Part shown: in pieces, positions 40,136-59,254 of the stretch
How the letters are laid out: each line of letters opens with the position of its first letter
Numbering within the stretch: the first letter of the stretch is position 1
Assembly: GCF_000179235.2 (NCBI RefSeq)
Contig: NZ_CP039373.1
Location: forward strand, 1,271,860 to 1,335,859
Direction: 5' to 3'
Length of the DNA stretch: 64,000 nt
From: Synechococcus sp. CB0101
GTDB lineage: Bacteria > Cyanobacteriota > Cyanobacteriia > PCC-6307 > Cyanobiaceae
Notes under the pieces: generated by a model
Databases searched by the model: none
What the model was told of the DNA's origin: nothing
What the model saw: only the letters and a program-made list of their open reading frames with translations
Position numbers and translations under genes: made by a program

Positions 40136-40208
<73 letters not shown>

Positions 40209-40321: not shown

Positions 40322-40440
40322 CTACAGGGAAAGTGAGTTTCCCTCCAGATCTGCCACGATCGGATGGCCGGCCGGCGCACTTTCCCTCCAGCTTTCCCTC
40401 CAAATTTGCGCCACTGAATCAGTCGACGAATCAGTGGGTC
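40322..40440. repeat. Putative arm-type integrase/excisionase sites, left end
   Basis: Four copies of one short motif lie within 81 bases: CTACAGGGAAA at 40322-40332 and its inverse TTTCCCTCCA at 40338-40347, 40381-40390 and 40393-40402. GAATCAGTGGGTC follows at 40428-40440. The same two motifs recur near attR (58868-58993). Such shared short repeats flanking the crossover core are what tyrosine integrases use as arm sites. Confidence 0.65.
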
Positions 40441-40475
40441 GAGGCGGCGAGAGCTGGGAATGCTCAAAGGAGCCG

Positions 40476-41675
40476 ATGCCCCCTGCTGTGAACCGATCCG
40501 CCCTGACCCTCTACTCCCATCGCCTGGTGGAGGACGGCTGCCGCTTCCGCCTGCACGCCAGCCCGGAGAAGTCGCCCTATCTGTACGTGCGCGAGATCGT
40601 CGACGGCGAACGCCTGCGCCAGTTCTCACTGGCCCCGCTGGAGTGGGTTGCCCGGGAGGACGTGATCAGCGCCTATGAGCGCTGCCTGGCCGGCCATGAG
40701 CTTGGCAGCTGGCCAGAGCAGGAGAAGACCGACGCCAGTAGCAGTCTTAGCTGGAGCACCCTGGCCGAGGAAACGATCGCGTGGCTGCAGCAACGCCGCC
40801 CGCGCTCCCTGGGTACCTACCGCACCTACCTGCGCCAGATCGGCCAGCTCAAGGGCAAACCCCGCACCCAGGCCCTGCGGGAGTGGGCGCGCCAGGCCGA
40901 TCCAGCCAGCCGGGGCTACACGGTGCGCATCGACACCCTGGCCCGCATCCGCGACTGGGGCTCCTCCCTGGTGAACGAAGCACTGCTCAGCGAACTCCGT
41001 GCCCTGCGCCCCAGCGGCAAGGAGCGGCGACGCACCGCCCGGGAGGCCAACAGGCCGCGGGCCATCCCCTCGCAGGAGGCCTTGCAGGGGTGGCTGGATG
41101 GAATCGAATCACGGCCGCTGCAATGGGCCCTGGCGATGGTGGCCACTTACGGCCTGCGCCCCCATGAGGTGTTTCACCTGGAGTGCCTGCCGGATGCGGA
41201 GGGCTGGATCCAGATCGGCGGCGCCGAGCGCACCAAAACCGGCTTTCGCCCGGTGATGCCCGCGCCGCTGGAGTGGGTAGAGCGCTACGGGCTGCGGGAG
41301 AACCTGACAGGGGCCCTGCCCTGGACCCCGCAGTTCGACGCCAGCGGCACCTGCCTCAATAACCAGTACCTGGGAGGGCAGCTGGGACGGGCCATGCGCC
41401 TACGGCTCCCTGCGCTCACGGTGGTGGCCCAAGCCAGCGCCAGCGCCCACCGCCGAGCCACCCAGGAAATCCTGCAATGCGTGCCCTACGACCTACGCCA
41501 CGCCTGGGCCATTCGCCTGGCGTCCGATCCGGCCTATGCCCACATCTCAGCGGAGACAGCGGCCGAAATGATGGGCCACAGCCGTGATGTGCACAAAGAG
41601 ATCTATCTCTTCTGGATCACCAAGGATGAGATTCAGCGGGGCATCAAAGCCCGCACGCAGCCGATCGCGGCGTGA
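40476..41675 (+). CDS. Tyrosine recombinase (integrase)
   Basis: 399 residues from ATG 40476; GTG 40434 in the same frame is an alternative. AAAGGAG sits three bases before ATG 40476, closer than ideal. The catalytic domain shows Arg I in TYGLRPHEVFHL, HxxR as DLRHAWAIRL, a second His in MMGHSRDVHK and the nucleophile Tyr in HKEIYLFWI. The N-terminal half is a core-binding domain. It lies beside the tRNA in the normal position for a tRNA-targeting integrase and is judged intact. Confidence 0.9.
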   Translation: MPPAVNRSALTLYSHRLVEDGCRFRLHASPEKSPYLYVREIVDGERLRQFSLAPLEWVAREDVISAYERCLAGHELGSWPEQEKTDASSSLSWSTLAEETIAWLQQRRPRSLGTYRTYLRQIGQLKGKPRTQALREWARQADPASRGYTVRIDTLARIRDWGSSLVNEALLSELRALRPSGKERRRTAREANRPRAIPSQEALQGWLDGIESRPLQWALAMVATYGLRPHEVFHLECLPDAEGWIQIGGAERTKTGFRPVMPAPLEWVERYGLRENLTGALPWTPQFDASGTCLNNQYLGGQLGRAMRLRLPALTVVAQASASAHRRATQEILQCVPYDLRHAWAIRLASDPAYAHISAETAAEMMGHSRDVHKEIYLFWITKDEIQRGIKARTQPIAA

Positions 41676-41690
41676 GCACCCGGCACACCC

Positions 41691-41990
41691 TCAAATGCGA
41701 TCGAGGGCCAAATCACAGCGCTGACGATTCCAGAGGAACACGCCGCGCATCGCCGTGGGGTTCTTCTTGATGTAGTGCCGCTTTTCCACCAGAACACCTT
41801 CCTGGCGCAGCCGATCCAGGGTGGCACGGCTGATGCTGAGGTGACGCAAGATGGCCTTGGTGTCGACCCACAGAGACGGGCTTGAAAGCGAGGCTTCGCA
41901 GCCTGGATAGAGACCCAAACGATCCCTCTCCCGCGGTAAACGACAACGACCTCGTGCTCGACTCTGCAAGACGCCTCCAGGTATAGACAA
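41691..41990 (-). CDS. AlpA/MerR-like DNA-binding protein, possible excisionase
   Basis: Up to 99 residues; the true start may be internal because the first 35 residues look non-conserved. The C-terminal 60 residues read WVDTKAILRHLSISRATLDRL followed by QEGVLVEKRHYIKK and VFLWNRQRCDLAL, the winged helix-turn-helix of AlpA/Xis-like proteins. Such proteins direct excision and regulate integrases. It is convergent with the integrase, with stops 15 bases apart. Confidence 0.65.
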   Translation of the reverse strand: MSIPGGVLQSRARGRCRLPRERDRLGLYPGCEASLSSPSLWVDTKAILRHLSISRATLDRLRQEGVLVEKRHYIKKNPTAMRGVFLWNRQRCDLALDRI

Positions 41991-42033
41991 AGGCTACTGG
42001 CGCCAACCTTGAGCGATCTTGGGAGTGCGGCAC

Positions 42034-42200
42034 GGGGTGCATCACCTGAGGCATGGGGTGCCTCACTAGAGACCTGTGAGGTCCCATGGGTGGGTGCAGA
42101 TTGACCTCAGGGTGAGGCCATATTGATCTCACCAGTGAGGCCAGATTGATCTCACCCCCTAGGTCAGATCGCCCCAAGGGGCTGAGGCAGATTGACCCAC
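42034..42200. repeat. Tandem 22-23-bp repeat array (iteron-like)
   Basis: Five degenerate repeats have their core A(G/T)ATTGA (one is AGATCGC) at 42098, 42120, 42143, 42166 and 42189, so spacing is 22, 23, 23 and 23 bases. The best two, at 42112-42134 and 42135-42157, differ at two positions and have GTGAG...CTCAC symmetry. Before them, GGGGTGC(A/C)TCAC occurs at 42034 and 42055, 21 bases apart. An AT-rich tract (42200-42250) follows. This could be a replication origin or a cooperative operator for the 42208 gene. Confidence 0.7.
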
Positions 42201-42207
42201 CATCTAT

Positions 42208-43092
42208 ATGGTTCAAAAAGTCTTAGAAAATAAAACCAAAACAACAACACACACCCATCCGAGCAATCCAGGGATCAGGGGAGGAAGGAGCAAGCAGCAG
42301 CCAGGCAGGCCGACGCTCCAACCAACGCCAGTAGCCTCCAGTACAAGCACAGCCCCGATGATCTGCCCTCCTCCCCAGCGCTTCTTTTGCGTACACACCG
42401 AAGCGATTGAGCAGACCCATCGAGCCCTGCAACAACTGGAGCAGCAACGCAAAGGCTCCAAGAGACCCAGCCGAGCCCTACGGGTGGCTCAGCTCTACGG
42501 CTACCTGCAACTCAGAGCCAGAGATGGCGAGGCCGTGCAACTGGGCCTGAAGCATCTGGCCGAAAGCTGGCACGTGCAACCCCGCGAACTTCGCGCCGAC
42601 CTCAACGACCTCCAGAGCCTGGGCTGGTTGAGCTTCACCACCGGGATGCACGGCACCACGGTTCAGCTCTCCGAGCCGCAGGAGAACGAGCCACTGCAAT
42701 CCGAACAGCCGGCCTTGGGGACAACCGAGGAGAGCGTGGAACCCTTCAACGAGAGCAGCGCAGGTGCGCCGGAGGCTTCCTTGATCGGGCAGTTCTACAG
42801 CATCTACAACCAAGAGCGTCCGATCACCTGGCCGACTCTCAACGCCCCCAATGGAGCCTTGAGCCGTGCGCTGCAGAGCGCGATCGCCGTTGCCGGAACC
42901 CCAGACACCTTCTGGCGGGTGTTGCGAGTGGCCCTGCAAACCATGCCTGAGTTCTGGCGCACGACCTATCCCCAGGGGCGCACAGGCGCTCAATGCGCTG
43001 CCGCGCTCCTGAAGAGCAACCAGTTCGAGGACGACCTTGGCCCCGAGTTCTGGCATGTGTTCCGCTGGGGTGAGGCAGCCCTGCAAGCCTGA
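42208..43092 (+). CDS. Winged-helix protein, possible replication or regulatory protein of the island
   Basis: 294 residues from ATG 42208; the first 50 are low-complexity Thr/Pro/Gln and ATG 42358 is a plausible alternative. Residues 85-155 form a helix-turn-helix region (LGLKHLAESWHVQPRELRADLNDLQSLGWLSF). A hydrophilic linker leads to a C-terminal alpha-helical domain (ALSRALQSAIAVAGTPDTFWRVLRVAL). I do not recognise a family. Because it follows an iteron-like array and an AT-rich stretch, a Rep-like or repressor role is possible. Its stop is three bases before the interrupted DUF429 gene. Confidence 0.6.
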   Translation: MVQKVLENKTKTTTHTHPSNPGIRGGRSKQQPGRPTLQPTPVASSTSTAPMICPPPQRFFCVHTEAIEQTHRALQQLEQQRKGSKRPSRALRVAQLYGYLQLRARDGEAVQLGLKHLAESWHVQPRELRADLNDLQSLGWLSFTTGMHGTTVQLSEPQENEPLQSEQPALGTTEESVEPFNESSAGAPEASLIGQFYSIYNQERPITWPTLNAPNGALSRALQSAIAVAGTPDTFWRVLRVALQTMPEFWRTTYPQGRTGAQCAAALLKSNQFEDDLGPEFWHVFRWGEAALQA

Positions 43093-46477: not shown

Positions 46478-48256
46478 TTGAACCCCTCTGCCCAGCTCCC
46501 AGGCATCGAGACGGGACAAGCCGATGAACGGAAGGACGACTTCATGGGCGCCCTGGCCGCACTTGGCGGATCGGCCGGGAACGGTCGCCTGCGCAGCATC
46601 CTGGAGTGGGATGAAGACACCTATGAGGCGGTGCGATCGGATCTGGTAAGCACTGGCATGGTTGTTCCCGGGCGCGGGCGCGGAGGTTCGGTGGCCTTGA
46701 ACGACGGGAGCACTGGCGATCAGGCCGCTGCCTCATCCAAGCCCGCATCCAGACGATCTCGCATGTCCAAGGAGCCAACAACAGCGAGCAGCTTCGATCA
46801 GGCCTTCCGCGCCATCGACGACTGCCTGCGCAAGGAAGCGGGCTGCGGCACCGAACTCGACTACACCGAGCAGACCTCCTGGCTGCTGTTCCTCAAATAC
46901 CTCGATGGCCTGGAGGACGACCGGGCCGCCATGGCCCTGCTTGAGGGTCGCAGCTACACCCCGATCCTGGAGGAGCCCTACCGCTGGAACAGCTGGGCGG
47001 CGCCCAAGAATGCCGATGGCCAGCTGGATCACAACGCCTCGCTCACAGGCGACGACCTGCGCGATTTCGTGAATCAGCGGTTGTTTCCCTACCTGGAGCA
47101 GTTCAAGCAGCGCGCCAGTGGGCCCAACACGATTGAGTACAAGATCGGTGAGATCTTCGGGGAGATCCGCAACAAAATCTCCAGCGGCTACAACCTGCGC
47201 GAAATCATCGATGTGATCGATGGCCTGCGCTTCCGCTCCCAGGCCGAGAAGCACGAGCTCTCGATGCTCTACGAGGAGAAGATCAAGCGGATGGGCAACG
47301 CCGGCCGCAACGGCGGCGAATACTACACGCCCCGGCCGCTGATCCGCGCCATCGTGCAGGTGATCAACCCACAGATCGGCGAAACCGTCTACGACCCTGC
47401 CGTTGGCTCCGCAGGCTTTCTCTGCGAAGCGTTCGAATACATGCGCAAAGGCGGGGCTTCAGGCCGTGAGTTGAGCACAGAAGATCTGGACACACTGCAG
47501 ACCCGCACCTTCACCGGCAAGGAAAAGAAGAGCCTCGCCTATGTGATCGCGATCATGAACATGATCCTGCATGGGATCGAAGCACCCAAGATCATCCATG
47601 CCAACACGCTCACCGAAAACCTGAGCGATGTGCAGGAGCGGGATCGTTTTGACGTAATCCTCGCCAACCCTCCGTTCGGCGGCAGCGAACGCAAGGAGGT
47701 GCAGCAGAACTTCCCGATCCGCTCAGGGGAAACAGCCTTCCTGTTTCTTCAACACTTCATCCGCATGTTGCGGGCCGGCGGCCGCGCCGGCGTGGTGATC
47801 AAGAACACCTTACTCTCCAACTCAGATAATGCTTCTGTGGCCCTGCGCCAAAAGCTGCTGGAAGAGTGCAACCTGCACACCGTGCTCGATTGCCCCGGCG
47901 GCACCTTCCAGGGAGCAGGTGTGAAAACGGTGGTGCTGTTCTTCGAGAAGGGAGCACCAACCCAAAAGGTTTGGTTCTACCAGCTCGATCCAGGACGCAA
48001 CCTCGGCAAGACAAACCCGCTCCACGATCGCGATCTGGCCGAGTTCGTGGAGCTGCAGAAGAACTTCGCAGATTCACCCAAGAGCTGGAGTCTTGATGTG
48101 GCGGACGTGGATCCGCAGACGTTTGATCTGTCGGTGAAGAATCCACACGCCGCCCAGGCCGTTGCCCACCGAAGTCCTCAGGAGATCATGGCGGAGATTG
48201 CCGCGCTGGATGCGGAAGGCGCGTTGGCACTGAACAAGATCAGGGGGCTGTTGTGA
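46478..48256 (+). CDS. hsdM: Type I restriction-modification DNA methyltransferase subunit (HsdM)
   Basis: 592 residues. Residues 1-95 form an extra winged-helix-like module (MGALAALGGSAGNGRLRSIL; VPGRGRGGSVAL) before the usual HsdM N-terminus (SSFDQAFRAIDDCLRKEAGCG). The catalytic domain has GGEYYTPRPLIRAIV, SAM motif DPAVGSAGFLCEAF and NPPFGGSE at N397, typical of N6-adenine methyltransferases. HsdM needs HsdS for target choice. Start TTG 46478 is tentative. Its stop overlaps the hsdS GTG start by four bases. It appears intact, but the partner hsdS is not. Confidence 0.93.
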   Translation: MNPSAQLPGIETGQADERKDDFMGALAALGGSAGNGRLRSILEWDEDTYEAVRSDLVSTGMVVPGRGRGGSVALNDGSTGDQAAASSKPASRRSRMSKEPTTASSFDQAFRAIDDCLRKEAGCGTELDYTEQTSWLLFLKYLDGLEDDRAAMALLEGRSYTPILEEPYRWNSWAAPKNADGQLDHNASLTGDDLRDFVNQRLFPYLEQFKQRASGPNTIEYKIGEIFGEIRNKISSGYNLREIIDVIDGLRFRSQAEKHELSMLYEEKIKRMGNAGRNGGEYYTPRPLIRAIVQVINPQIGETVYDPAVGSAGFLCEAFEYMRKGGASGRELSTEDLDTLQTRTFTGKEKKSLAYVIAIMNMILHGIEAPKIIHANTLTENLSDVQERDRFDVILANPPFGGSERKEVQQNFPIRSGETAFLFLQHFIRMLRAGGRAGVVIKNTLLSNSDNASVALRQKLLEECNLHTVLDCPGGTFQGAGVKTVVLFFEKGAPTQKVWFYQLDPGRNLGKTNPLHDRDLAEFVELQKNFADSPKSWSLDVADVDPQTFDLSVKNPHAAQAVAHRSPQEIMAEIAALDAEGALALNKIRGLL

Positions 48257-48301
48257 AAGAAGATTGGCAGACCAAGAAGCTAGGGGATGTCTGCACTCTA
48301 A

Positions 48302-49517
48302 GGAAACTCTGGACAAGCGGTGTTTGAGCGGCGGCAGCGAGCAGAAAGAGTGGTTTTGGCTGCAAATTGCCTCTGAGGCCATTTTTTGATGACCTTGGCT
48401 CACATATCCAGCCACTTTCGGCTGGTTTTGAGGCTAAATAGAGGTGTGCAGGCACACCAAGTCCCTGTTCACACTGTCGCGAGTAATTGTCGTCGGGCCT
48501 GGTACAGATTCGACAGTGCCGCAAGCACGTTGATTTTGCAGCGGTTCTTGGCCAAGCCTCGCAGCCGGGTCTTTTGAAAGCCGAACTGCTGCTTGATCAC
48601 ACGGAAGGGATGCTCAACCTTGGAGCGGATGTGAGCTTTGGCCGTCTCGATCAGATCCTGCACCCTCCCATCCGGGGTGTCAGGAAGAGCCCTGCGCGTG
48701 CCGGGCCGCATCGCCACTCTGAACTCCGCTGTCTTGCCAGCCATTTCTGGTCTCTTGGCGATGCCCTGGTAGCCAGCATCGCCGTACACCACCTCCTCAT
48801 CTCCATGCAGTAGCTCAGCTGCCGGGGTGAGGTCGTGCACGTTGGCGGCGGTGACGACAACCGAATGGATCAGGCCTGAGTCCTTGTCAACGCCGGCGTG
48901 GACCTTCATGCCGAAGTACCACTGGTTGCCCTTTTTGGTCTGGTGCATCTCCGGATCCCGCTTCCCATCTTTGTTCTTGGTGGAGCTGGGCGCTGCGATC
49001 AAGGTGGCATCGACGATCGTGCCCTGACGCATGGTTACGCCCCGAGCGGCCAGGAGCGCTTTGACGGTGTCAAAAATCTGCTCACCCAGCCCATGCTTCT
49101 CAAGCAGATGGCGGAACGTGAGGATCGTGGTCTCGTCCGGGATCCGATCGCTGATCAGCTCGATGCCGGCAAAGCGGCGCATGGTGGGCACCTCGATCAA
49201 GGCCTCTTCCATGGCCGGATCGCTGAGGGAGTACCACTGCTGCAGCAGATGAATGCGCAGCATCGTTGCCAGCGGATAGGGAGGCCTGCCGCCTTTCTTG
49301 CTCGCCTTGGGGTAGTGCGGCTCGATCAGATCGATGAGTGCCTGCCAAGGCACCACAGCCTCCATCTCGGAGAGAAATTTCTCGCGCTTGGTGCGCTTCT
49401 TGGCCGTGGTCAGCTCATAGTCCGTGAAACCGAGCTGCTTGCCGCCCATCAACCCAGTCCTGGTCTGCGATTACAGGTTCATTTTCGCGCAGACGGGCTG
49501 GGTTTTCCAGAATTTCC
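48302..49517. mobile_element. IS5-family insertion sequence (1216 bp)
   Basis: Inverted ends are GGAAACTCTGGACAAG at the left and, inverted, GGAAATTCTGGAAAAC at the right (13 of 16 match). Direct copies of CTAA at 48298-48301 and 49518-49521 are the target duplication; CTAA fits the YTAR target of the IS5 group. The element contains one transposase gene on the minus strand. About 160 bases between the left end and the transposase stop carry no gene. Confidence 0.93.
48469..49452 (-). CDS. IS5-family transposase
   Basis: 327 residues. An N-terminal segment QLGFTDYELTTAKKRTKREKF with PWQALIDLIEPHYPKAS is followed by the DDE core: IVDATLIAAPSSTKNKDGKR, YGDAGYQG and a terminal helix with VEHPFRVIKQQFGFQKTRLRG. 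This is the IS5 group pattern. The frame is intact, so the element could still move. Confidence 0.94.
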   Translation of the reverse strand: MMGGKQLGFTDYELTTAKKRTKREKFLSEMEAVVPWQALIDLIEPHYPKASKKGGRPPYPLATMLRIHLLQQWYSLSDPAMEEALIEVPTMRRFAGIELISDRIPDETTILTFRHLLEKHGLGEQIFDTVKALLAARGVTMRQGTIVDATLIAAPSSTKNKDGKRDPEMHQTKKGNQWYFGMKVHAGVDKDSGLIHSVVVTAANVHDLTPAAELLHGDEEVVYGDAGYQGIAKRPEMAGKTAEFRVAMRPGTRRALPDTPDGRVQDLIETAKAHIRSKVEHPFRVIKQQFGFQKTRLRGLAKNRCKINVLAALSNLYQARRQLLATV

Positions 49518-50731
49518 CTAATCAAACGCGGCATCTCACCCTCCTACGCAGAAGAAGGCGGCATCTGCGTCCTAAATCAGAAATGCATTCGCGACCACTC
49601 AATTAACTATGCGCACTCAAGACGCCACAACCTAGACAGCAAGAAAGTCCCGGCAGAGAGATACATTCAGATCGGTGACGTGTTGGTCAACTCAACAGGC
49701 ACTGGCACACTCGGGCGCGTTGCGCAAGTACGCGAACAACCCCAAGAAGCAACGACCGTCGACTCCCATGTCACCATCGTTCGACCAGATCGAAGCATAT
49801 TTTACCGAGAGTTTTTCGGCTATATGCTCGTCATAATTGAAGACGCGCTAAAAGAAGCTGGAGAAGGATGTGGCGGCCAAACCGAACTTTCTCGATCCGC
49901 GCTGGCCGAACAATTTTCAGTGAGCTATCCAGCTTCACTGACAAAACAGCAGCGGATCGTCGACATACTCGACGAAGCCTTCGAGGCCCTTGCCACCGCC
50001 AAAGCCAACGCCGAACAGAACCTCCGGAATGCCCTAGCTGTCTTCGAAAGCCACTTGGAAGCGGCCTTCAACCAGAAAGAGGAAGGATGGACGGAGAAGC
50101 GCCTGGGAGAGCTTGCCGACTTTAAGAATGGCTTGAATTTCTCGCGCAACAGCAGCGGACAGACGCTTCGCATGGTCGGCGTCGGAGACTTTCAGGAGCG
50201 CTCTATTGTCCCGCTCGACAAGCTGCAATGCACAACCATCGATGGCAACGTCACTGAGGACTACTTGATTCGCGAGGGAGATATTTTAACGGTCCGCTCC
50301 AATGGAAGCAAGGACCTGGTCGGTCGCTGCATGCTCGTTCCAGCCGTAAATGAAATGATTTCCTACTCGGGATTCATCATCCGCATACGGCCAGACGGTC
50401 AAACAACAAGCCCACGCTTCTTGCTTTACTTTATGAAGTCGAGAACTGCTCGCAGCCGCCTCACGAGCGACGGAGGAGGCACAAGCATCAGCAATATCAA
50501 CCAAGCGAAACTTGCCACACTACCTGTTTTGCTTCCTCCCCTGAAGAAACAGGAGGAAATCGCGAATCACTTGGACGCCTTCAGCAAAGAATCGAAGCGA
50601 CTTACCTCAATCTATGAACGCAAAATCGCCGCCCTCGAGGAACTCAAAACCTCCCTACTGCACCAGGCCTTCAGCGGCAAGATCTAACCCCTGGCGCACA
50701 CGACGTTGAGCCGTATGTAATCCCTGATGCC

Positions 50732-51158
50732 ATGAGCCCCGCGATCATCATCCTGGCAGGCCCCAATGGCGCCGGCAAAACCACCTTCGCGCGTTCGTTT
50801 CTGCCGCAAGAGGCCAACTGTCTACGGTTCATCAATGCCGATCTGATCGCCGCCGGCCTACCTCCCTACGAGGTCTGGACTATCTGGCTCGCATTCGCGA
50901 GTGGCGCTCCATGGGCTACAAGATCAGTCTCTACTTTCTGGCATTACCGAGTCCAGAAACAGCCATCCTGCGCGTTGCTGCGCGCGTGAAACAGGGAGGG
51001 CACAGCATCCCGGAGGCTGTCATCCGGCGACGCTTTATCGCAGGCTTACACAACTTCGAAGCCTGCTACAAGTCTGAGGTGATCACTGGGTGAAGTACAA
51101 CAACTTGGGTGACCAACCGGTCTTGATAGAGTGGGGCGAGGCGAGTGGAGGGGAATGA
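50732..51158 (+). pseudogene. Zeta-toxin-like P-loop kinase remnant
   Basis: The N-terminus reads [23 protein letters not shown] with a Walker A box, and [10 protein letters not shown] follows, typical of zeta-type kinases. Then about 40 codons are missing: the frame changes and resumes as [22 protein letters not shown] and, after another shift near 51088, ends KYNNLGDQPVLIEWGEAS. So it has a deletion and two frame changes and cannot make a full protein. Its restored stop overlaps the start of the next small gene (ATGA). Confidence 0.8.
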
Positions 51159-51373
51159 AGGACATCCGTGAGTGCAGCGATCCTGTGATGCGTGGCTCCA
51201 TGGCTGCTCTTCAGCGAGCAGCCGAAGAAGCGCGCCGCATTGCCATCCAGACCGGCACCGAGCTGATCACCATGCGCGAGGGAAAGATCTGCAAACTTTC
51301 GCCCGAGGAGATCGCCAAGCTGCCACCCATCGTGGAGTCCACGCCTGATTCGCAACGGACCACTGGCCCTTGA
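51155..51373 (+). CDS. Small protein linked to zeta-like kinase, possible antitoxin
   Basis: 72 residues from ATG 51155 (MKDIRECSDPVMRGSMAALQRA). A helix (AAEEARRIAIQTGTELI) is followed by a short beta segment (TMREGKICKL). Proteins like this occur next to zeta-type kinases in cyanobacteria and are candidate antitoxins, by position only. It remains open although its presumed toxin is broken. An upstream GTG (51131) is less likely. Confidence 0.55.
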   Translation: MKDIRECSDPVMRGSMAALQRAAEEARRIAIQTGTELITMREGKICKLSPEEIAKLPPIVESTPDSQRTTGP

Positions 51374-51435
51374 CATCAACCTGAGCAGCCGTGGAGAGGT
51401 TCTCTATTCCCGCGGAGATCGGTCAGACTACCCCC

Positions 51436-51819
51436 ATGAGTGCCACAGCCAGTCCCTCCGGCTATCACTACGTCGTCGACGAGCCGCTGCTTCGCACGAT
51501 CGCGGCCGAGATCCAGGCGGCCATCCCCGGTGCCGTAGTGCGCCTGTTCGGCTCACGCGCCCGCGGTACCGCCCGCCCCGACTCGGACCTGGATCTTCTG
51601 GTGACCGTGCCGGATGCCTGGCTGGCGGCTCATTCGCGGTTGGAGCAAACCGATGCCCTGGGCTGGAAGTTGGCCTATCACCGCCTGCCGATCGAGCTTC
51701 TGCTCTTCTCCGCCAGCGAGGTGGCAGAGCGCCGGCATGGCAACAGCAATGTGATCGCTGAGGCCTTCCGCTATGGCCGCCAGCTGGATTCAGCGGAGTC
51801 CCTGCATGGCCCCAGCTGA
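51436..51819 (+). CDS. MNT-type minimal nucleotidyltransferase (antitoxin-like)
   Basis: 127 residues from ATG 51436. The nucleotidyltransferase motif GSRARGTARPDSDLDLLV (GSx10DxD) is complete. In MNT-HEPN pairs the MNT protein modifies and silences the HEPN partner. Its stop overlaps the HEPN gene start by 14 bases, so this is a standard MNT-HEPN toxin-antitoxin pair. The frame is open upstream to 51391 but homology starts at MSATASP. Confidence 0.8.
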   Translation: MSATASPSGYHYVVDEPLLRTIAAEIQAAIPGAVVRLFGSRARGTARPDSDLDLLVTVPDAWLAAHSRLEQTDALGWKLAYHRLPIELLLFSASEVAERRHGNSNVIAEAFRYGRQLDSAESLHGPS

Positions 51820-52189
51820 AACCCCGAGCGGTTTTCTGCGCATCGCGCAGCGCGATCTGCGCGCGGCCCACGGAATGGTGGATGCCACTCTCTTCTATGA
51901 AGAGCACTGGGGTTTTCAGATCCAGCAAGCCACCGAGAAGGCTCTCAAAGCTTGGCTCCTCGTGCTCCAGCCAAAGCAACCACCCTTCAGCCACAACCTG
52001 AGGCTGTTGTTTCAGATGCTGCGCGATCTCAGTGCTCCGATTGATCCATTCATCGGGCTGAGTCGCTTCACGGAGTTCGCTGTTCTCAGGCGCTACGACG
52101 AAGAACCGGATCTTGAACAACTGGATCGCGCCGCCTGGAATCAGCTCTGTGCCGATCTGCTCGCCCATGTGGCCGCGCTGATCCCATGA
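51806..52189 (+). CDS. HEPN domain protein (toxin-like)
   Basis: 127 residues from ATG 51806 (MAPAETPSGFLRIAQRDLRAA). The helical bundle HWGFQIQQATEKALKAWLL and FSHNLRLLFQMLRDL match the HEPN domain. I do not see the usual RX4-6H motif of ribonuclease-type HEPN toxins near the C-terminus, where FAVLRRYDEEP occurs instead, so activity may differ or be lost. The stop overlaps the hsdR start by four bases, coupling this pair to the restriction operon. Confidence 0.75.
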   Translation: MAPAETPSGFLRIAQRDLRAAHGMVDATLFYEEHWGFQIQQATEKALKAWLLVLQPKQPPFSHNLRLLFQMLRDLSAPIDPFIGLSRFTEFAVLRRYDEEPDLEQLDRAAWNQLCADLLAHVAALIP

Positions 52190-54531
52190 ATGAGGCCGAC
52201 ACCCGTGCCGAATTGATCGATCCGCTGCTCACGGCAGCCGGTTGGGGCGTGGTGGAAGGCAGCCGCATCCGGCGTGAGTTTTCGATCACCCCCGGCCGCA
52301 TTGAAGGCGGTGGTCGTCGCGGCAAACCGCTCACAGCCGACTACGTGCTCACCTATCGCAACACCCAGCTGGCGGTGGTGGAGGCCAAGCCCGACACCGC
52401 ACCCCTCACCGAAGGCGTGGCCCAGGCCAAGGACTACGCCAGCAAACTGCAACTGCGCTTCACCTACGCCAGCAACGGCCTTGGCGTCTACGCCATCGAC
52501 ATGGCCACCGGTGAGGAGGGCGAAGCCGAACGCTTCCCCACACCGGAGGAGCTGTGGACACGCCAGTTCGCCGAGGAGAACGCCTGGCGAGATCGCTTTG
52601 CGGCCGTTCCCTATGCAGACAAGGGGGGCAGCTGGCAGATCCGCTTTTATCAGGACATTGCTGTGTCGCGGGTGCTGGAAGCGGTAGCCACCGGCTGCGA
52701 CCGCATCCTGCTCACCCTCGCCACCGGTACCGGCAAAACCTCGATGGCCTTCCAGATCCTCTGGAAGCTGTTCCAGTCCCGCTGGAATCTGTCCGGCCAG
52801 CCCAGTCGCCGGCCACGCATTCTCTTTCTCGCGGATCGCAACACCCTCGCCGATCAAGCCTTCAACGACTTCACCAGTTTCGCCGCCTTCGAAGACAACG
52901 CGTTAGCTCGAATGGAACCCGGCGATCTGCGCAAAAAGGGCCGCGTACCCACCAACGCCAGTGTGTTCATCACCATCTTCCAGACCTTCATGAGCGGTCC
53001 GGTGGTGGAGGGCAAACCCTCACCCTGGTTCGGTCAATACCCGGCGGACTTTTTCGACTTCATCGTGATCGATGAATGCCACCGCGGCGGCGCCAACAAC
53101 GAATCCACCTGGCGCGGCATCCTCGAATACTTCGCCCCCGCGGTGCAGCTGGGGCTCACCGCCACCCCCCGGCGCACCGACAACGCCGACACCTACGCCT
53201 ACTTCGGCGAACCGGTGTTCACCTACTCCCTGAAGGAAGGCATCAACGACGGCTTCCTAACGCCCTTCCGCGTCAAGCAGATCACCACAAGCCTTGATGA
53301 GTACGTCTACACCGCAGACGACACCGTGGTGGAAGGAGAGGTTCAGGAGGGGAAGCGCTATACCGAGGCCGAGTTCAATCGCATCATCGAGATTGAGCGG
53401 CGCGAACGGCAGCGGGTGGAGATCCTGCTCAGTCAGATCAACCAGCGCGAGAAAACGCTGGTGTTCTGCGCCACCCAGGAGCACGCCCTGGCGATTCGCG
53501 ACCTGATCAACCAGCGCAAGAGCAGCACCGATCCCAACTACTGCCATCGCGTGACGGCCGACGATGGCGAACTCGGCAACACCTGGCTACGGGCTTTTCA
53601 GGACAACGAGAAGACACTCCCCACCATCCTCACCACTTCGCAGAAGCTCTCGACTGGCGTGGATGCCCGCAATGTACGCAACATCGCCTTGCTGCGTCCC
53701 GTGAATTCGATGATCGAGTTCAAGCAGATCATCGGTCGTGGCACCCGCCTCTACGACGGTAAGGACTACTTCACCATCCTCGATTTCGTGAAGGCGCATC
53801 ACCATTTCAGTGATGCGGAATGGGATGGAGAGCCAATCGCGCCCGAAGGGCCTGCGAGAGGCACCCCTACACCGAACCCGGGACCTGAAGAGCCGGAAGA
53901 TCCAGCAACGACCGATCCGGACACGCAGCCTCGGCCAGCGAAGGTCAAGACCAAGCTCGGCGATGGCAAGGAGCGATCGGTCCAGCACATCCTGGTCACC
54001 AGCTTCTGGCATCCCGATGGCAAGCCGATGAGCTCACAGCAATTCATCGAACTGCTGTATGGAGAACTGCCTGAGTTTGTGCGAGACGAAGCCGAACTAC
54101 GGGCCATCTGGAGCAAGCCACACACTCGCAGCAAGCTGCTGCAGGGACTGGCAGACAAGGGCTTTGGACCCGATCAACTGACTGAGATGCAAGCGATCAT
54201 CTCCGCCGAGGACAGCGACCTCTTTGATGTACTGGCTCACGTGGCTTACGCCTTACCACCCATCCCACGCGAGTTGCGCGCGCAACAGGCTCGGCTGTAC
54301 ATCCACTCCCACTTCACCAACAAACAACAGCTTTTTATCGACTTTGTGCTTCAGCATTACGTGACCACAGGCGTGCAGGAGCTGGCCCAAGAAAAACTGG
54401 CGGCATTGCTGCGTCTCCGCTACCAGAACTCCATCGCCGATGCCATTTCGGATCTGGGACAACCAGAGGAAATCGGGAAATTGTTCGCAGGGTTTCAGCG
54501 CTACTTATACGAGCCCGAGCCTCAGTGTTAA
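52186..54531 (+). CDS. hsdR: Type I restriction enzyme, R subunit (HsdR)
   Basis: 781 residues. An N-terminal nuclease region (TADYVLTYRNTQLAVVEAK) has the D...ExK residues. The translocase has Walker A ATGTGKTS near residue 180, DECH near 295, TATPRR, and the later QIIGRGTRLYDGKDYFTILD. HsdR cuts unmodified DNA after HsdM/HsdS recognise the site. It is complete but, with hsdS broken, cannot be guided. It starts inside the HEPN stop and overlaps the end of the opposite ardC gene. Confidence 0.93.
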   Translation: MNEADTRAELIDPLLTAAGWGVVEGSRIRREFSITPGRIEGGGRRGKPLTADYVLTYRNTQLAVVEAKPDTAPLTEGVAQAKDYASKLQLRFTYASNGLGVYAIDMATGEEGEAERFPTPEELWTRQFAEENAWRDRFAAVPYADKGGSWQIRFYQDIAVSRVLEAVATGCDRILLTLATGTGKTSMAFQILWKLFQSRWNLSGQPSRRPRILFLADRNTLADQAFNDFTSFAAFEDNALARMEPGDLRKKGRVPTNASVFITIFQTFMSGPVVEGKPSPWFGQYPADFFDFIVIDECHRGGANNESTWRGILEYFAPAVQLGLTATPRRTDNADTYAYFGEPVFTYSLKEGINDGFLTPFRVKQITTSLDEYVYTADDTVVEGEVQEGKRYTEAEFNRIIEIERRERQRVEILLSQINQREKTLVFCATQEHALAIRDLINQRKSSTDPNYCHRVTADDGELGNTWLRAFQDNEKTLPTILTTSQKLSTGVDARNVRNIALLRPVNSMIEFKQIIGRGTRLYDGKDYFTILDFVKAHHHFSDAEWDGEPIAPEGPARGTPTPNPGPEEPEDPATTDPDTQPRPAKVKTKLGDGKERSVQHILVTSFWHPDGKPMSSQQFIELLYGELPEFVRDEAELRAIWSKPHTRSKLLQGLADKGFGPDQLTEMQAIISAEDSDLFDVLAHVAYALPPIPRELRAQQARLYIHSHFTNKQQLFIDFVLQHYVTTGVQELAQEKLAALLRLRYQNSIADAISDLGQPEEIGKLFAGFQRYLYEPEPQC

Positions 54532-55444
54532 TCCGGCAAATCAACGACCACCTCGTCCGGGCAGATCAGATCCACCGCCCGACGCGCATCGCCAAGCACC
54601 TCCACCAACATCCGCGGTGATTCGCGCAACAACGCGATCCAACTAGCGAGATAGGCGGCGTGATTGGCCACATCACTGCCGATCTCGAGTCGTTCCCCAG
54701 CAACACCGCGCCCAGTTCCGCCACCAGCTCCTCACGGGCGTAGGCACGGCTGCCCACCGTCCCGGAGAGATCACGCGCCAGGCGGGCGGGATGCCCCGTG
54801 GAATGCACCGCCTCGTGCCCCCAGGTGGCATAAAGCGCAGCCGGGGAGTGAAACACCGCCCGCTCAGGCAAGTGAATGCAATCAGCCGCAGGCCGATAGC
54901 AGGCCTGACCGCCGCCATGCACCGCCTCAACCGGCCAGCTGGAGAGCACAGATTCCGCAGCCGCCAGCCGCTCGGGCACCGGTCGCCGCACCACCCCATC
55001 CGCCTCACGGCGCGTCTGGATCAGCCCTGCGAGCGCCTCACCCACCAGATCCGCCGCGTTGAACACGGGCACCGGCCGGTAGCTCACCCAGCTGCGGGGC
55101 ATGGCGGCCGATCCAGAGGCCTCCACCGCTGCGGACGCCTCTGGATCGGCCGGGCTCACATGCACCTGAGGCCGCAACACATACACCGCCTTACTGCCTT
55201 TGCGCGGCGAGAGTCCGCGCGACTTCGCCTCCCCGAAACCGCACCAATAAGGCAGGGCCGAACCACGCAGGTGCATCCCAAGGGTGAGCAACACCGGATT
55301 GGAGCCGCGGTAGCGGCGGCCACTGATCAGGTTCACGTGATGACCACCACCCACCGCGTCCCACTCGCGCCGCCAGGGGGTTGTTCCCTGCTCGAGCAGG
55401 GCGATCAACGATTCGGTGAGCTTCTGATCAACAACGGCAGGCAT
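54528..55444 (-). pseudogene. ArdC-like antirestriction protein with a frameshift
   Basis: The N-terminal ssDNA-binding domain (TPWRREWDAVGGGHHVNLISG; YWCGFGEAKSRGLSPRKGSK) and the zincin HExxH as WGHEAVHSTGHP are present. At 54695-54698 a run of four C (G on the coding strand) appears to lack one base: the frame leaves AELGAVLLG and the other frame continues as ERLEIGSDVANHAAYLASW to a stop at 54528. A single-base deletion therefore breaks an otherwise full gene. ArdC proteins block type I restriction during DNA transfer. Confidence 0.82.
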
Positions 55445-55638
55445 GGCAGCGCAAACGGCACTGCCCTGAGCGTTCCCCGCGGCCGCCCCGCAGCGTCAGT
55501 GCAAGGCGACGCGGTCCTGCAAGGTCCCGCTCACGTATTTGTGCAGAACGCTGAGCCCCATGGCCGTGATGCCCTGATGGTCGTGGAACGGCACCGGTGG
55601 AGCTTCAACTGCCCAAAAAGGTATAGATTCAGAACTCT

Positions 55639-55902
55639 ATGGAGTTTGAGTTCGACCCGAGCAAAAGCCAGTCCAACCAGGAGAAGCACGGCATTGACTT
55701 CGTTGCCGCGCAGGCGCTCTGGGAAGACCCCGCTTTGCTGGAGATCGCCGCGCGCACGCTGGATGAGCCGCGATGGCTCGTCATCGGTCGCATTCAGCGC
55801 AAACACTGGTCAGCGGTGATCACCCTGCGCGGCCAAGCCATCCGACTCATCTCCGTCCGTCGATCACGCCCTGAGGAGATTCAGCTCTATGAACAGCTCT
55901 GA
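55639..55902 (+). CDS. brnT: BrnT-family toxin
   Basis: 87 residues. MEFEFDPSKSQSNQEKHGIDF and AQALWEDPALLEIAARTLDEPRWLVIG with ISVRRSRPEE are the BrnT pattern, a RelE-like ribonuclease. The frame is intact and preceded by about 190 bases with no other gene, in which a promoter should lie. The stop overlaps the start of the partner gene. Confidence 0.85.
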   Translation: MEFEFDPSKSQSNQEKHGIDFVAAQALWEDPALLEIAARTLDEPRWLVIGRIQRKHWSAVITLRGQAIRLISVRRSRPEEIQLYEQL

Positions 55903-56146
55903 GTTTGATCAATCCTTCGATCAGGGCGATTCCGTGCTGAACTCGCTGGATCTCGCCTCCGCCCGGCGGCCCCGTCTGCAGCAGAAGCGCGTCAATGTCG
56001 ACTTTCCGCTCTGGATGGTCGAACAACTGGATCGGGAAGCGTCGCGCCTCGGCGTGACGCGCCAGTCGATCATCAAGGTTTGGCTGTCGGAGCGGTTGGA
56101 GCCGCCTCTCGCGGCCGATCGGCCGCAGGCCACCGGAAACCGCTGA
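55889..56146 (+). CDS. brnA: BrnA-type ribbon-helix-helix antitoxin
   Basis: 85 residues. The C-terminal half has QKRVNVDFPLWMVEQLDREASRLGVTRQSIIKVWLSERL, a ribbon-helix-helix domain. It begins 14 bases inside brnT. BrnA binds BrnT and represses the operon. The N-terminal 28 residues are acidic. Named as brnA by the pairing and domain; sequence identity to the Brucella protein is not known. Confidence 0.8.
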   Translation: MNSSEFDQSFDQGDSVLNSLDLASARRPRLQQKRVNVDFPLWMVEQLDREASRLGVTRQSIIKVWLSERLEPPLAADRPQATGNR

Positions 56147-56177
56147 CGCGTGCCGAGGCAGACATCAGAGGGATGGC

Positions 56178-56363
56178 CTACAGATCACGGATGGAGAGGC
56201 GACTATTGATGCGCTGATCTTTCTGACCCGTGGCCCTGGCGGACTCGCGAAGGTCCTCCAACAGCGCAGCTGTTGCAACGCTCTGCAGGGCGCCTAGTTC
56301 GACATCTTCGAGCAATTGCTGCTCGGTAGCGTCGAGAGGGATCTCAGTGTTCGGTTCAGGCAT
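56178..56363 (-). pseudogene. Truncated antitoxin-like fragment
   Basis: 61 codons from ATG 56363 (MPEPNTEIPLDATEQQLLEDV) to a stop after QKDQRINSRLSIRDL. The last part resembles the KDxRINIRLSxRDL segment of cyanobacterial CopG-type antitoxins, in which an EGIPYQTLI-type helix normally follows. Here the frame stops at that point, so the DNA-binding end is missing. A short orphan gene is the alternative. Confidence 0.45.
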
Positions 56364-56465
56364 CGTTTCTCCCCAGACGTACATCACTGTGGAGCCTGAC
56401 CACCAGAAACCGTTTTCCGGCCTTCCGGTGCCAACCTCGGCCGCAAACAGCGGACACCTCACGCC

Positions 56466-57917
56466 ATGGCCCGCCGCGCTGCCCTGGATCGCCAGACGCT
56501 GATCGCCCTGGGGCCGGAACGGCTCGCCGATCTGCTGCTCGACCTGGCCAATGCCGATCCAGCGCTCAAACGCCAACTGCGGCTGGCGGTGGCCACCGGC
56601 GCCAGTCCCACCGATGCGGCATCCCTGGTGCGCGAACGCCTGGGCACGATCCGCCGCGGCAGCACCTTCCTCAAAGGGCCCCAGATCAGAGCCCTGGCCA
56701 AAGATCTCGACCAACAACGCGACGCCATCACCGGTCCGATTGCCGCAGCGGAGCCAGCGGCGGCCTTGACACTGCTGTGGGAGTTTCTCGATCTGAGCGA
56801 CAGCGTGTTCGCGCGGTGCATCGACCGCAGTGGGGTGCTGTCGGATCTGTTCCGCAGCGCTTGCCGGCAACTCGGCCCCCTGGCTCTGGCCGCCGAACCC
56901 GATCCAGAAACGCTGGCCGAACAGGTGTTCAACGCCTTCTGCGACAACGGCTATGGCATCTACGACCCACTGATCGCCAGCCTCACCGAGGCGCTGGGCC
57001 CCCAAGGGCTGCAGGCCCTCAAGCAACGGTTCGAGCAGCTGGCCCAGGAGCCGGTGCCCGTCCCTCCGGAAGCGGAGTGGAAAGCGGTGTCGTGGGGCAG
57101 TGGCGGCACGGGCTACGCCCATCAATATGCCGAACAGGCGCGCCAGTGGGCCGTGAAGGACGGCCTGCAGGCCGTGGCCCAGGCCATGGGTGATGTGGAT
57201 GGCTACATCAGCCAATTCAGCGAGGAACAGCGGCGCGCCCCGCGCATCGCCGCCGGGATCGCCCAGCGCCTGCTCAAGGCCGATCGGCCGGCGGATGCCC
57301 TGCAGGCCCTGGAATTCGGCCCAGCCCATCGCAGCGGCTGGCCGGTGTTCGACTGGGAGGACGCCCACATCGCCACCCTGGAAGCCCTGGGTCGCAGCGC
57401 CGATGCCCAGGCCGCACGCTGGCAGTGCTTTGAGCGCTCACTCAACGAGGAGTACCTCAGGGCTTACCTGCAACAGCTGCCCGCTTTCGAGGATGTGGAG
57501 GCTGAACAGCAGGCGATCGACCTGGCCGCCAAGCACCCCCAACACCTGCAAGCGCTCTGCTTTCTGCTCAACTGGCCGTCAGCCCTCGGCCGGGCCGCCG
57601 AACTGATCGTGCAGCGCCGCGACAGCCTGGATGGCGATCAGTACACCGTGTTTGGTCCCGCAGCGGAGAAGCTGAGCGCCGACCATCCCCTGGCCGCCAC
57701 CCTCGCCTTGCGCTGCATGGTGGATTTCACCCTCACCCACGCCCGCAGCAGCCGATACAGCCACGCCGCCAACCATCTGCACACCTGCCAGCTGCTCAGC
57801 CAGCGCATCAGTGACTGGGGCGCCATCCAGCCCCACGACGCCTACATGGCCACCATCCGCAGCCAACATGCTCGCAAGAGCAGCTTCTGGAGCCAGGCCA
57901 AGCCGCTGGGGCTCTGA
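56466..57917 (+). CDS. Uncharacterised protein resembling DUF6880
   Basis: 483 residues, all-helical. N-terminus MARRAALDRQTLIALGPERLAD, then LANADPALKRQLRLAVA and the SFLKGPQIRALAKDLDQQ region, as in DUF6880 proteins. Later parts contain TPR-like helical pairs (ADALQALEFGPAHR; LEALGRSADAQAARWQCFERS). No catalytic motif is seen. It is cargo of the island, intact, and reads in the same direction as brnTA. Function unknown. Confidence 0.6.
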   Translation: MARRAALDRQTLIALGPERLADLLLDLANADPALKRQLRLAVATGASPTDAASLVRERLGTIRRGSTFLKGPQIRALAKDLDQQRDAITGPIAAAEPAAALTLLWEFLDLSDSVFARCIDRSGVLSDLFRSACRQLGPLALAAEPDPETLAEQVFNAFCDNGYGIYDPLIASLTEALGPQGLQALKQRFEQLAQEPVPVPPEAEWKAVSWGSGGTGYAHQYAEQARQWAVKDGLQAVAQAMGDVDGYISQFSEEQRRAPRIAAGIAQRLLKADRPADALQALEFGPAHRSGWPVFDWEDAHIATLEALGRSADAQAARWQCFERSLNEEYLRAYLQQLPAFEDVEAEQQAIDLAAKHPQHLQALCFLLNWPSALGRAAELIVQRRDSLDGDQYTVFGPAAEKLSADHPLAATLALRCMVDFTLTHARSSRYSHAANHLHTCQLLSQRISDWGAIQPHDAYMATIRSQHARKSSFWSQAKPLGL

Positions 57918-57944
57918 GGGTGTGACACGACCCGGGGCCGGATC

Positions 57945-58803: not shown

Positions 58804-58867
58804 AGCTGCAGATCTGCCGCACGCATGCACTTAAGCATCCCTGCAACAACAGGGGGAGCACAGCGAT

Positions 58868-58993
58868 CTACAGGGAAACTCACAGGGAAACTCAAAACAC
58901 CGAATCAGTGGGTCAGCCCACTGATGAGGGATCAGCAGGTTGCAACCGGAATTTCGACATTTCAGTTTGCAACGGGGAAACTTACAGGGAAAG
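58868..58993. repeat. Putative arm-type integrase/excisionase sites, right end
   Basis: CTACAGGGAAACT at 58868-58880, CACAGGGAAACT at 58881-58892, and TTACAGGGAAAG at 58982-58993 repeat the motif found near attL. GAATCAGTGGGTC at 58902-58914 matches 40428-40440. A palindrome GGTTGCAACC lies at 58939-58948. The 58804-59041 stretch holds no gene. Confidence 0.6.
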
Positions 58994-59041
58994 CAGGGCA
59001 ACCACCCCTAGTCATACCAAGCGATCTCAGCGAAAAACGAT

Positions 59042-59087
59042 TGATTCGTAATCAGTAGGTCGCAGGTTCAAATCCAGTCACCGGCTT
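59042..59087. repeat. attR: right copy of the 46-bp integration repeat
   Basis: Identical to 40163-40208. It contains bases 28-72 of tRNA-Thr without the 5' half, so it cannot form a tRNA. It is followed directly by the terminator at 59096, which was presumably the original tRNA terminator. Confidence 0.92.
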
Positions 59088-59095
59088 GAAGACAC

Positions 59096-59137
59096 AAAAG
59101 AACCGCCAGAGGCCCTGCAGTCACTGGCGGTTCTTTT
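59096..59137 (+). terminator. Rho-independent terminator after attR
   Basis: AAAAGAACCGCCAG and CTGGCGGTTCTTTT form a perfect 14-bp stem with a 14-base loop, followed by GTTTT. With the A run before it the hairpin could work both ways. Before the island entered, it would have ended tRNA-Thr transcription. Confidence 0.9.
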
Positions 59138-59254
59138 GTTTTACGGCGATTGGCTTTTCCGTGATCGCGACGGCTGTGCGACAGCGTTGAGCGGGAAAAG
59201 CCTCGATGGATGGCTACAACGCAGATACGACCTTTCGCACGCAAGGCACAGTTC

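What the first reader, a model, noticed from the sequence alone, without database searches (positions are those of the whole stretch)
42034..42260. Iteron-like array plus AT-rich stretch next to a winged-helix gene
Five repeats with cores A(G/T)ATTGA spaced 22, 23, 23 and 23 bases, two further GGGGTGC(A/C)TCAC repeats 21 bases apart, an AT-rich tract and then a winged-helix gene resemble a plasmid or satellite origin with its initiator. Such a module inside a chromosomal island would mean the excised form can replicate. An operator cluster for the 42208 gene is the alternative. I know of no description of this module.
Basis: partly seen in the sequence, partly recalled or inferred. Interest (0 to 1): 0.78.

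Follow-up and report, generated by a model that had tools for sequence, protein, structure and literature searches.

The report
Iteron origin and initiator in island
A small mobile island in a cyanobacterium carries what looks like a DNA replication origin and its matching starter protein, a cut-down version of a module that larger phage-like islands use together with their own helicase and primase, and it also carries two copies of a binding-site type that belongs to one of those larger islands in the same genome.

Summary
The repeats are real and lie in an 18.9-kb integrative element at tRNA-Thr (46-bp att repeats; empty site in both relatives aligned). Homologues of the winged-helix protein occur at 12 other places in nine genomes (Vulcanococcus and relatives). 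In all 12, repeats end at a conserved CATCTA(T/A)AT and AT-rich tract; in 11 of 12 the gene is followed by DnaB-like helicase and DnaG-type primase genes. The family is remotely related to the protein before dnaB in cyanophage PSS2; its fold resembles, among other winged helices, plasmid RepA initiators. Array type co-varies with one recognition-helix residue (Glu or Leu) in 12 of 13 copies; one is intermediate. Most likely an iteron origin with its cognate initiator. The window copy lacks helicase, primase and the initiator's C-terminal domain, so replication, if any, would need a helicase from elsewhere. It also bears two repeats of the other type, which in this genome occur elsewhere only in the array of an intact relative 0.94 Mb away. 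Nothing about replication or binding was measured, and the copy may be a remnant. Helper-dependent island origins are known (SGI1, PLE); this is a new variant.

The parts
40163..40208 (+). attL: 46-bp direct repeat, 3' part of tRNA-Thr (tRNA 40136-40207)
   Evidence: exact copy at 59042-59087
40434..41675 (+). tyrosine integrase-like protein, 413 aa
   Evidence: PHROG 'integrase' E 4.9e-8; Pfam Phage_integrase only E 0.037, below cut-off; 36-41% identical over part of its length to integrases of the larger elements
41691..41885 (-). small helix-turn-helix gene, probable excisionase (the ORF from TTG reaches 41990; conserved part given)
   Evidence: 50-52% identical to small ORFs next to the integrases of larger elements; weak NCBIfam Xis match, E 0.028, below cut-off
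42026..42044 (+). type-2 iteron, copy 1 (slot -175 from 42201)
   Evidence: 1 mismatch to TGAGGCACGGGGTGCATCA
42047..42065 (+). type-2 iteron, copy 2 (slot -154)
   Evidence: 2 mismatches; like copy 1 it matches best on the opposite strand to most units of other type-2 arrays
42091..42109 (+). type-1 iteron 1 (slot -110)
   Evidence: 3 mismatches to TGAGGNCAGATTGATCTCA
42113..42131 (+). type-1 iteron 2 (slot -88)
   Evidence: 1 mismatch
42136..42154 (+). type-1 iteron 3 (slot -65)
   Evidence: 0 mismatches; the consensus was read from this unit
42159..42177 (+). type-1 iteron 4, degenerate (slot -42)
   Evidence: read directly; over 6 mismatches
42182..42200 (+). type-1 iteron 5 (slot -19)
   Evidence: read directly; over 6 mismatches
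42201..42255 (.). conserved CATCTATAT plus AT-rich tract, candidate unwinding element
   Evidence: CATCTA(T/A)AT in 13 of 13 copies; 69% AT here, 53-71% in the 12 others
42358..43092 (+). initiator-like winged-helix protein, 244 aa; winged helix about residues 14-106, recognition helix 75-87 with Glu77; lacks the C-terminal domain of the relatives
59042..59087 (+). attR: second copy of the 46-bp repeat; element is 18,879 bp
   Evidence: native chromosome resumes at about 59255-59300 by comparison with two empty sites

Best explanation
The feature is an iteron-type replication origin with its cognate initiator, reduced from the replication module of larger phage-like integrative elements of this group. 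Inferred mechanism: initiator molecules bind the 22-23-bp-phased iterons through the winged helix, strain the neighbouring AT-rich tract open, and recruit a replicative helicase; occupancy of the array may also control the initiator gene. Shown here: array, tract and gene conserved as a unit; linkage to helicase and primase genes in the relatives; co-variation of array type with a recognition-helix residue; a defined integrative element around it. Inferred: DNA binding, unwinding, replication. Because this copy lacks helicase, primase and the C-terminal domain, I think the excised circle, if it replicates, takes its helicase from the host or from a resident relative such as the intact element at 2.25 Mb, in the manner of a satellite. 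The confidence given is for the identity of the module; that this copy still works is less likely (see the remnant rival, which overlaps with this one).
For: Homologues in 8 of 149 genomes searched, own genome included, plus one more (L034): 12 other copies. All 12 have CATCTA(T/A)AT preceded by repeats; units of the six type-2 arrays fall at -19, -42, -65/66, -88, -110/112, -133, the register of the window's units. Helicase and primase genes directly downstream in 11 of 12 (by similarity; Pfam DnaB_C, Zn_ribbon_DnaG and Toprim checked on two of them); divergent sigma-factor gene in 10 of 10 with enough flank (PHROG checked on one). PSS2 has the same order and its 305-aa protein before dnaB matches the family profile (probability 96.6, E 5.5e-10, 184 columns). 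Fold: 4pql, 4pt7, 5kbj, 4pta at Z 7.3-8.5 over 92-98 residues; viral library hits include proteins named replication initiator or replisome organizer, at low TM-scores of 0.2-0.3. Glu/Leu at residue 77 is the only fixed difference between 6 type-1 and 6 type-2 winged helices, and this split has the most disjoint columns of 462 (11, next 5). att repeats and two empty sites.
Against: No binding, unwinding or copy-number data. Repeat statistics are weak in five copies: L026 16, L023 34, L024 38, L031 97 and L021 137 of 300 shuffles reach the observed value. Structure matches are tied with ordinary regulators (CRP Z 8.8 over 72); Foldseek alone gave no PDB match at E 0.001. None of 11 members lists Pfam RepA_N at E up to 10. 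PSS2 shows no repeats in the 800 bp around the gene start. No exact DnaA box in the 420 bp upstream in any copy. Array similarity correlates with helicase identity (rho 0.55) as well as with winged-helix identity (0.51) over nine loci. The window protein deviates at 12 of 82 columns that are invariant in the 10 others of A1, the most of any member (next 6), and has lost the C-terminal domain: it may be decaying.
Confidence: 0.72

Rival explanations
1. Operator cluster only: the winged-helix protein is a transcription factor that binds its own upstream repeats, and perhaps the divergent xis promoter, with no origin function.
For: The array lies between divergent genes here and in the relatives. 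Structure matches include many regulators.
Against: 11 of 12 relatives have helicase and primase genes directly downstream; remote homologue before dnaB in PSS2; AT-rich tract at a conserved place. No sigma-70-type promoter was found in 41680-42420 (0, expected 0.2), though that scan is crude.
Confidence: 0.15
2. Decayed remnant: the module is an origin by descent, but the element lost its helicase, primase and initiator tail by deletion and IS insertion, and what is left does nothing. (Overlaps with the best explanation as to descent.)
For: Missing C-terminal domain and genes; most private deviations of any family member (12 of 82 columns); two of five type-1 units diverged; transposase-like genes at 43.7-46.5 kb (IS21 type, recalled); the copy L020 in the same genome is truncated.
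Against: The frame is open over 244 codons, 70 of 211 ungapped columns are identical in all 11 members, and the winged helix stays closer to relatives (56-71%) than the second domain (45-55%); three type-1 units lie within 3 mismatches of the consensus; integrase and xis-like frames are open and both att sites are exact.
Confidence: 0.25
3. The repeats are arm-type binding sites of the neighbouring integrase or excisionase, part of attP.
For: int and xis lie within about 350 bp.
Against: The 12 other arrays lie beside the initiator; in the five loci where I located both array and a related integrase (L031, L020, L021, L027, L023) they are about 8-19 kb apart.
Confidence: 0.04

Closest known systems
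SGI1 oriV-rep (Salmonella Genomic Island 1; PMC7433901, passages read)
   Same: Integrative island with int, xis, an iteron oriV in the intergenic region next to xis, and a rep gene; replication of the excised form seen only with the helper plasmid.
   Different: SGI1 rep has a RepA_C domain and its oriV lies downstream of rep with a putative DnaA box; here the protein matches no family, the array is upstream and no exact DnaA box was found. SGI1 iterons differ in sequence from those of its helper; here two units of a resident element's type are present. Replication is not shown here.
PLE RepA and origin of Vibrio cholerae satellites (PMC7145576 and PMC8263062, passages read)
   Same: Initiator with a RepA_N winged helix, not predicted to have helicase or primase activity itself; semi-palindromic iterons; origin and DNA-binding domain co-vary and have been swapped as modules.
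   Different: No RepA_N sequence match here; tyrosine-type instead of large serine integrase; larger relatives here carry helicase and primase; no helper dependence shown; PLE's helper is a lytic phage.
Replication module of cyanophage PSS2 (GQ334450)
   Same: Same gene order: 305-aa protein, dnaB, DNA primase; sigma factor and integrase nearby; remote homology of the first gene.
   Different: PSS2 is a whole phage; no repeats were found around the start of its gene.
Staphylococcal plasmid RepA (pSK41, pTZ2162)
   Same: Winged-helix fold over 92-98 residues (which entries are these proteins is from PMC7145576 for 4PT7 and 4PTA, recalled for 4PQL and 5KBJ); iteron-binding initiator (PMC7145576, passages).
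   Different: No sequence match; different element, host and C-terminal part; other winged helices score as well.
Tycheposons and VEIMEs of marine bacteria
   Same: Chromosomal islands of marine bacteria, many perhaps satellites (PMC10803314, passage); tRNA-linked elements in Prochlorococcus (recalled).
   Different: Not compared: the primary papers were not read, and shared genes were not tested.

Membership tests
Iteron-type replication origin | Several direct repeats of about 17-22 bp in helical phase | tested here: met
   five type-1 and two type-2 units, 21-23 bp apart except for one vacant slot
Iteron-type replication origin | AT-rich unwinding element beside the repeats | tested here: met
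   42201-42255, 69% AT, conserved position; unwinding itself not tested
Iteron-type replication origin | Initiator gene adjacent, whose product binds the repeats | tested here: inconclusive
   adjacent in 13 of 13 copies, which were found through the gene; binding inferred from co-variation only
Iteron-type replication origin | DnaA box (present in many, not all) | tested here: not met
   no exact TTWTNCACA in the 420 bp upstream in any of 13 copies; boxes with mismatches not sought
Iteron-type replication origin | Supports replication | not testable with these tools
   needs experiment
RepA_N initiators (Pfam PF06970) | Match to the family model | tested here: not met
   0 of 11 members list it at E up to 10 (HMMER's filters drop most matches above 0.1)
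RepA_N initiators (Pfam PF06970) | N-terminal winged-helix fold like 4pt7/4pta | tested here: inconclusive
   Z 8.4 and 7.3 over 94 and 92 residues, tied with other winged helices
Phage satellite | Integrative element with own integrase and att sites | tested here: met
Phage satellite | No full set of virion genes of its own | tested here: inconclusive
   none of the 15 terminase (phrog_2) matches in eight genomes lies in the element or the related loci; cargo scanned is restriction-modification, toxin-antitoxin and unknown; not every ORF was scanned
Phage satellite | Induced, replicated or packaged by a helper | not testable with these tools
   only sequence clue: two units of a resident element's iteron type

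The most novel reading that the evidence does not exclude
The island is a satellite with a hybrid origin: it keeps its own iterons and initiator but has dropped helicase loading, and it displays two copies of the resident phage-like element's iterons, placed in register with its own array and next to its xis gene. Those two sites would let the larger element's initiator bind the satellite, either to deliver its helicase and primase to the satellite's origin, to signal excision through the divergent xis gene, or to be titrated away from its own origin.
Probability: 0.25. Interest if true: 0.8.

Novelty: new variant of a known kind. Interest (0 to 1): 0.6.

Why it matters
As of 2018 inducible prophages had not been found in Synechococcus or Prochlorococcus isolates (PMC6157547, passage), so mobile elements of these hosts are little understood. 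A compact, genomically defined island whose origin region shows both its own and a resident element's binding-site type gives a testable model of how small elements may borrow replication from larger ones. The Glu/Leu switch in the recognition helix with matched array types, in modules that seem to be exchanged as units, makes initiator-origin specificity directly testable by exchanging one residue or one array in laboratory strains.

Tried and rejected
Rejected: integrase arm sites (the arrays stay with the initiator; in five loci a related integrase is about 8-19 kb away). Rejected: coding AT-rich tract (stops inside 6 of 7 upstream-reaching matches). A plasmid relative in PLSDB: initiator of L026 gave no match. 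No relative in IMG/VR viral contigs (13 pattern stretches, none confirmed). The S-CRES3 'DNA replication protein' shows no similarity to the family (hhalign probability 0.1%), although its gene is preceded by three 25-nt repeats 23-24 bases apart beside an AT tract; the S-CBS2 gene is preceded by four 20-nt repeats spaced 24, 17, 17; S-CBS2's protein was not compared with the family. Of five GGGGTGCATCAC/GGGGTGCCTCAC matches in the genome, two lie at 1.588 and 1.595 Mb; no array was seen by eye in 350 bp around them (their gene was not identified by any search). The Mantel test over nine loci did not separate winged-helix from helicase identity. Pfam, NCBIfam, PHROG and PDB sequence searches of the initiator found nothing credible. 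Rows left out of the type split: L025 (Leu, but no unit of either type within 6 mismatches); L023 also has no such unit and was put in type 1 by its 96% array match to L024. The type-1 19-mer is less specific than type 2: of its 39 matches within 3 mismatches in 25 genomes, 6 lie in initiator arrays (3 window, 3 L020) and 33 are scattered singles; the type-1 arrays other than these two have no unit within 3 mismatches.

Whether the larger elements are full prophages stayed open: ORFs of 90 or more codons from PSS2 bases 1-104058, compared with 58-106-kb stretches of four genomes, matched sigma factors, an exonuclease-like gene, integrase, a lysozyme-like gene (own genome only), helicase and primase, but no gene annotated as structural, at E 1e-4; 20 called genes of these regions were scanned with PHROGs and none matched a head, tail or packaging family.

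Full report
Setting. The window lies at 1271860-1335859 of a single-contig 2.79-Mb genome. Named records that hold relatives of the protein are Vulcanococcus and Synechococcus. The element that holds the feature is bounded by an exact 46-bp repeat, 40163-40208 (3' part of tRNA-Thr) and 59042-59087, so it is 18,879 bp long. In both relatives aligned for this, G005 and G008, the chromosome that follows attR here (from 59300 or 59255 to 64378) follows tRNA-Thr, with about 0.2 and 1.3 kb of unaligned sequence between: the empty site. A third copy of the 46-bp repeat, at 2194955-2195000, lies inside a stretch duplicated from here. From the left the element has an integrase, a small divergent HTH gene that resembles ORFs beside the integrases of related elements, the array, the winged-helix gene, a DUF429 gene, transposase-like genes (IS21 type, recalled), a type I restriction-modification system, a nucleotidyltransferase/HEPN pair, an ArdC-type antirestriction gene, a BrnT-type toxin with a candidate CopG antitoxin (below cut-off), and genes of unknown function.

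The observation. Cores start at 42098, 42120, 42143, 42166 and 42189; the fourth is AGATCGC. In the 140 bp before 42201 the best self-match lag is 23 (0.52), which none of 300 dinucleotide shuffles reaches at any lag from 8 to 60. The two GGGGTGC repeats belong to 19-bp units at 42026 and 42047. The ATG at 42208 is part of the conserved CATCTATAT; in 6 of 7 other copies whose match reaches upstream of residue 50 the frame holds stops, in one it is open; so the ORF start is probably 42358.

Relatives. The protein search over 149 genomes found matches in 8, the own genome included, all in the same genus; its 19 rows come from the window copy and 11 other places. The genome-contig scan gave 7 loci: six on contigs of the same lengths as ones already held, and one new (L034, Synechococcus sp. 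CS-1328). The 12 others lie in nine genomes. All 12 show CATCTA(T/A)AT 150-210 bp before the start of the aligned part of the protein, preceded by repeats. In the shuffle test, 8 of 13 copies (window included) were reached by 0 of 300 shuffles; L026, L023, L024, L031 and L021 gave 16, 34, 38, 97 and 137 of 300, their spacing being less regular. The best lag was 23 in 7 of 13, 45-47 in 4 and 12 in 2. Scored against 19-mers, the six type-2 arrays (L021, L026, L029, L031, L028, L030) have units at -19, -42, -65/66, -88, -110/112 and -133 from the motif, not every slot filled in each; the window's type-1 units fall at -65, -88 and -110, with two weaker ones at -42 and -19.

Gene context. In 11 of 12 other copies genes similar to a DnaB-like helicase and a DnaG-type primase follow directly (three primase genes run off a contig end); Pfam was run on two helicases and two primases. 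The exception, L020, is cut off after about 100 aligned residues. A sigma-factor gene is divergent upstream in 10 of 10 copies with enough flank; L024 and L025 start too close to a contig end (PHROG match checked on L021). Cyanophage PSS2 has a 305-aa protein, dnaB and primase in the same order, and that protein matches the family profile with probability 96.6 and E 5.5e-10 over 184 columns. The best viral structure match of the window model is a 305-aa protein, C7F4F3, without a name in the output, perhaps the same one; that is inferred from length. The terminase search of eight genomes gave 15 matches, none inside these loci (the genome of L034 was not searched). The larger elements are therefore phage-like, but I cannot call them prophages.

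Protein. The model of the 244-aa protein (mean pLDDT 66.7, pTM 0.43) is fair over the winged helix (residues 21-110, block means 64-86) and the second domain (141-220, 74-86), poor between. Among 1000 chains re-aligned, 4pql, 4pt7, 5kbj and 4pta score Z 8.5, 8.4, 7.8 and 7.3 over 94, 94, 98 and 92 residues. The PLE paper gives 4PTA and 4PT7, plasmid RepA proteins, as structural matches of PLE RepA (PMC7145576, passages). All 10 other proteins in A1 run on for 83-99 residues after the column of Trp237, the window protein for 7; L034 has the extension too. I take it as a candidate helicase-contact domain; that is inference. The window protein deviates at 12 of 82 columns invariant in the other ten, more than any other member (next 6, the rest 0-2), which fits a long separate history or relaxed constraint.

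Specificity. The arrays fall into two types and one intermediate (L025). Within the winged helix, 11 columns have disjoint residues between six type-1 and six type-2 proteins, the most of any of 462 six-six splits (next 5), and the single fixed difference is window residue 77, Glu in type 1 and Leu in type 2, near the start of helix 75-87. L028 and L030 are closer to the type-1 proteins L023, L024 and L034 (67-70%) than to the other type-2 proteins (51-56%), yet have Leu and a type-2 array, so common descent alone explains it less well. L027 against L021 and L026 has 83 and 81% identity in the second domain and 83 and 90% in the helicase, but 46 and 44% in the winged helix and another array type; L025 against L024 has 90% and 70%. 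That fits exchange of array and winged helix as a unit, as described for PLE (PMC8263062, passages). Against this, a rank test over nine loci gave rho 0.51 for winged helix, 0.24 for the second domain and 0.55 for the helicase (42, 439 and 42 of 5000 permutations), so it does not single out the winged helix.

The hybrid array. The type-2 19-mer with up to 3 mismatches occurs five times in this genome: twice in the window and three times in the array of the element at 2.2546 Mb, whose initiator, helicase and primase frames are open. Over 25 genomes of the genus it has 36 matches within 3 mismatches: 25 in initiator arrays (the window's two among them) and 11 scattered singles; the 12 matches with at most 2 mismatches are all in arrays (own genome 4, G005 2, G015 3, G007 3). 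No other of the 13 arrays holds units of both types within 3 mismatches. The window's two match best in the opposite orientation to nearly all units of other type-2 arrays, which speaks against a simple recombination relic; but the outermost unit of L029 (-133) also matches slightly better in the window's orientation (3 against 4 mismatches), and one unit each of L028 and L030 likewise (5 against 6). They are in register (-154, -175) with one slot (-132) empty. I do not know what they do.

Judgement. That this is an origin-initiator module by descent I hold at about 0.72. That the window copy still replicates anything is less certain, and dependence on a helper is a hypothesis. Helper-dependent island replication with an iteron oriV beside xis is known from SGI1 (PMC7433901, passages). 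In the paper library, searches for Vulcanococcus with mobile elements, for cyanophage iterons, for satellites with helper iterons, and for phage satellites in picocyanobacteria showed no listed paper that by title or abstract describes this module (only the listed part of the hits was seen, and few papers were opened).

Noticed in passing
window 49527-64000 (on to G000:C1:1338309) and G000:C1:2187593-2204517: A 16.9-kb stretch including attR and native chromosome (photosynthetic reaction-centre gene at 59803-60879) is duplicated at 99.94% identity, inverted. Copies of one insertion sequence lie at both ends here and at one end there; the junction at 2204517 lies about 100 bp from the end of the aligned part of the truncated initiator L020. 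Looks like transposition or recombination via the insertion sequence.
   Followed up: partly
L040:2642-2713 (phage S-CRES3) and L041:2588-2665 (phage S-CBS2): Replication-type genes of two cyanosiphoviruses (one annotated 'DNA replication protein', one hypothetical, both before a DNA helicase gene) are preceded by short tandem repeats beside an AT-rich tract: candidate phage origins.
   Followed up: partly
just before the initiator start in L021, L023-L026, L028-L031, L034: An inverted repeat of the form CAGGAG-CAGGT-CCTCCTG, with variants, lies before the start codon and could fold over the ribosome binding site; not seen by eye in the window, L020 or L027.
   Followed up: no
window 46478-54531: Type I restriction-modification genes with an insertion sequence (48297-49527) between hsdM and hsdS; the hsdS ORF matches its best profile only from position 71, so it may be truncated.
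   Followed up: no
L044, L046, L049, L051, L031: Related elements show two adjacent excisionase-like matches beside the integrase where the window has one.
   Followed up: no
L024 and L025 (two contigs of one genome): Two similar replication modules that share nearly the same first 100 bases but differ in array and winged helix: looks like an exchanged specificity cassette.
   Followed up: partly
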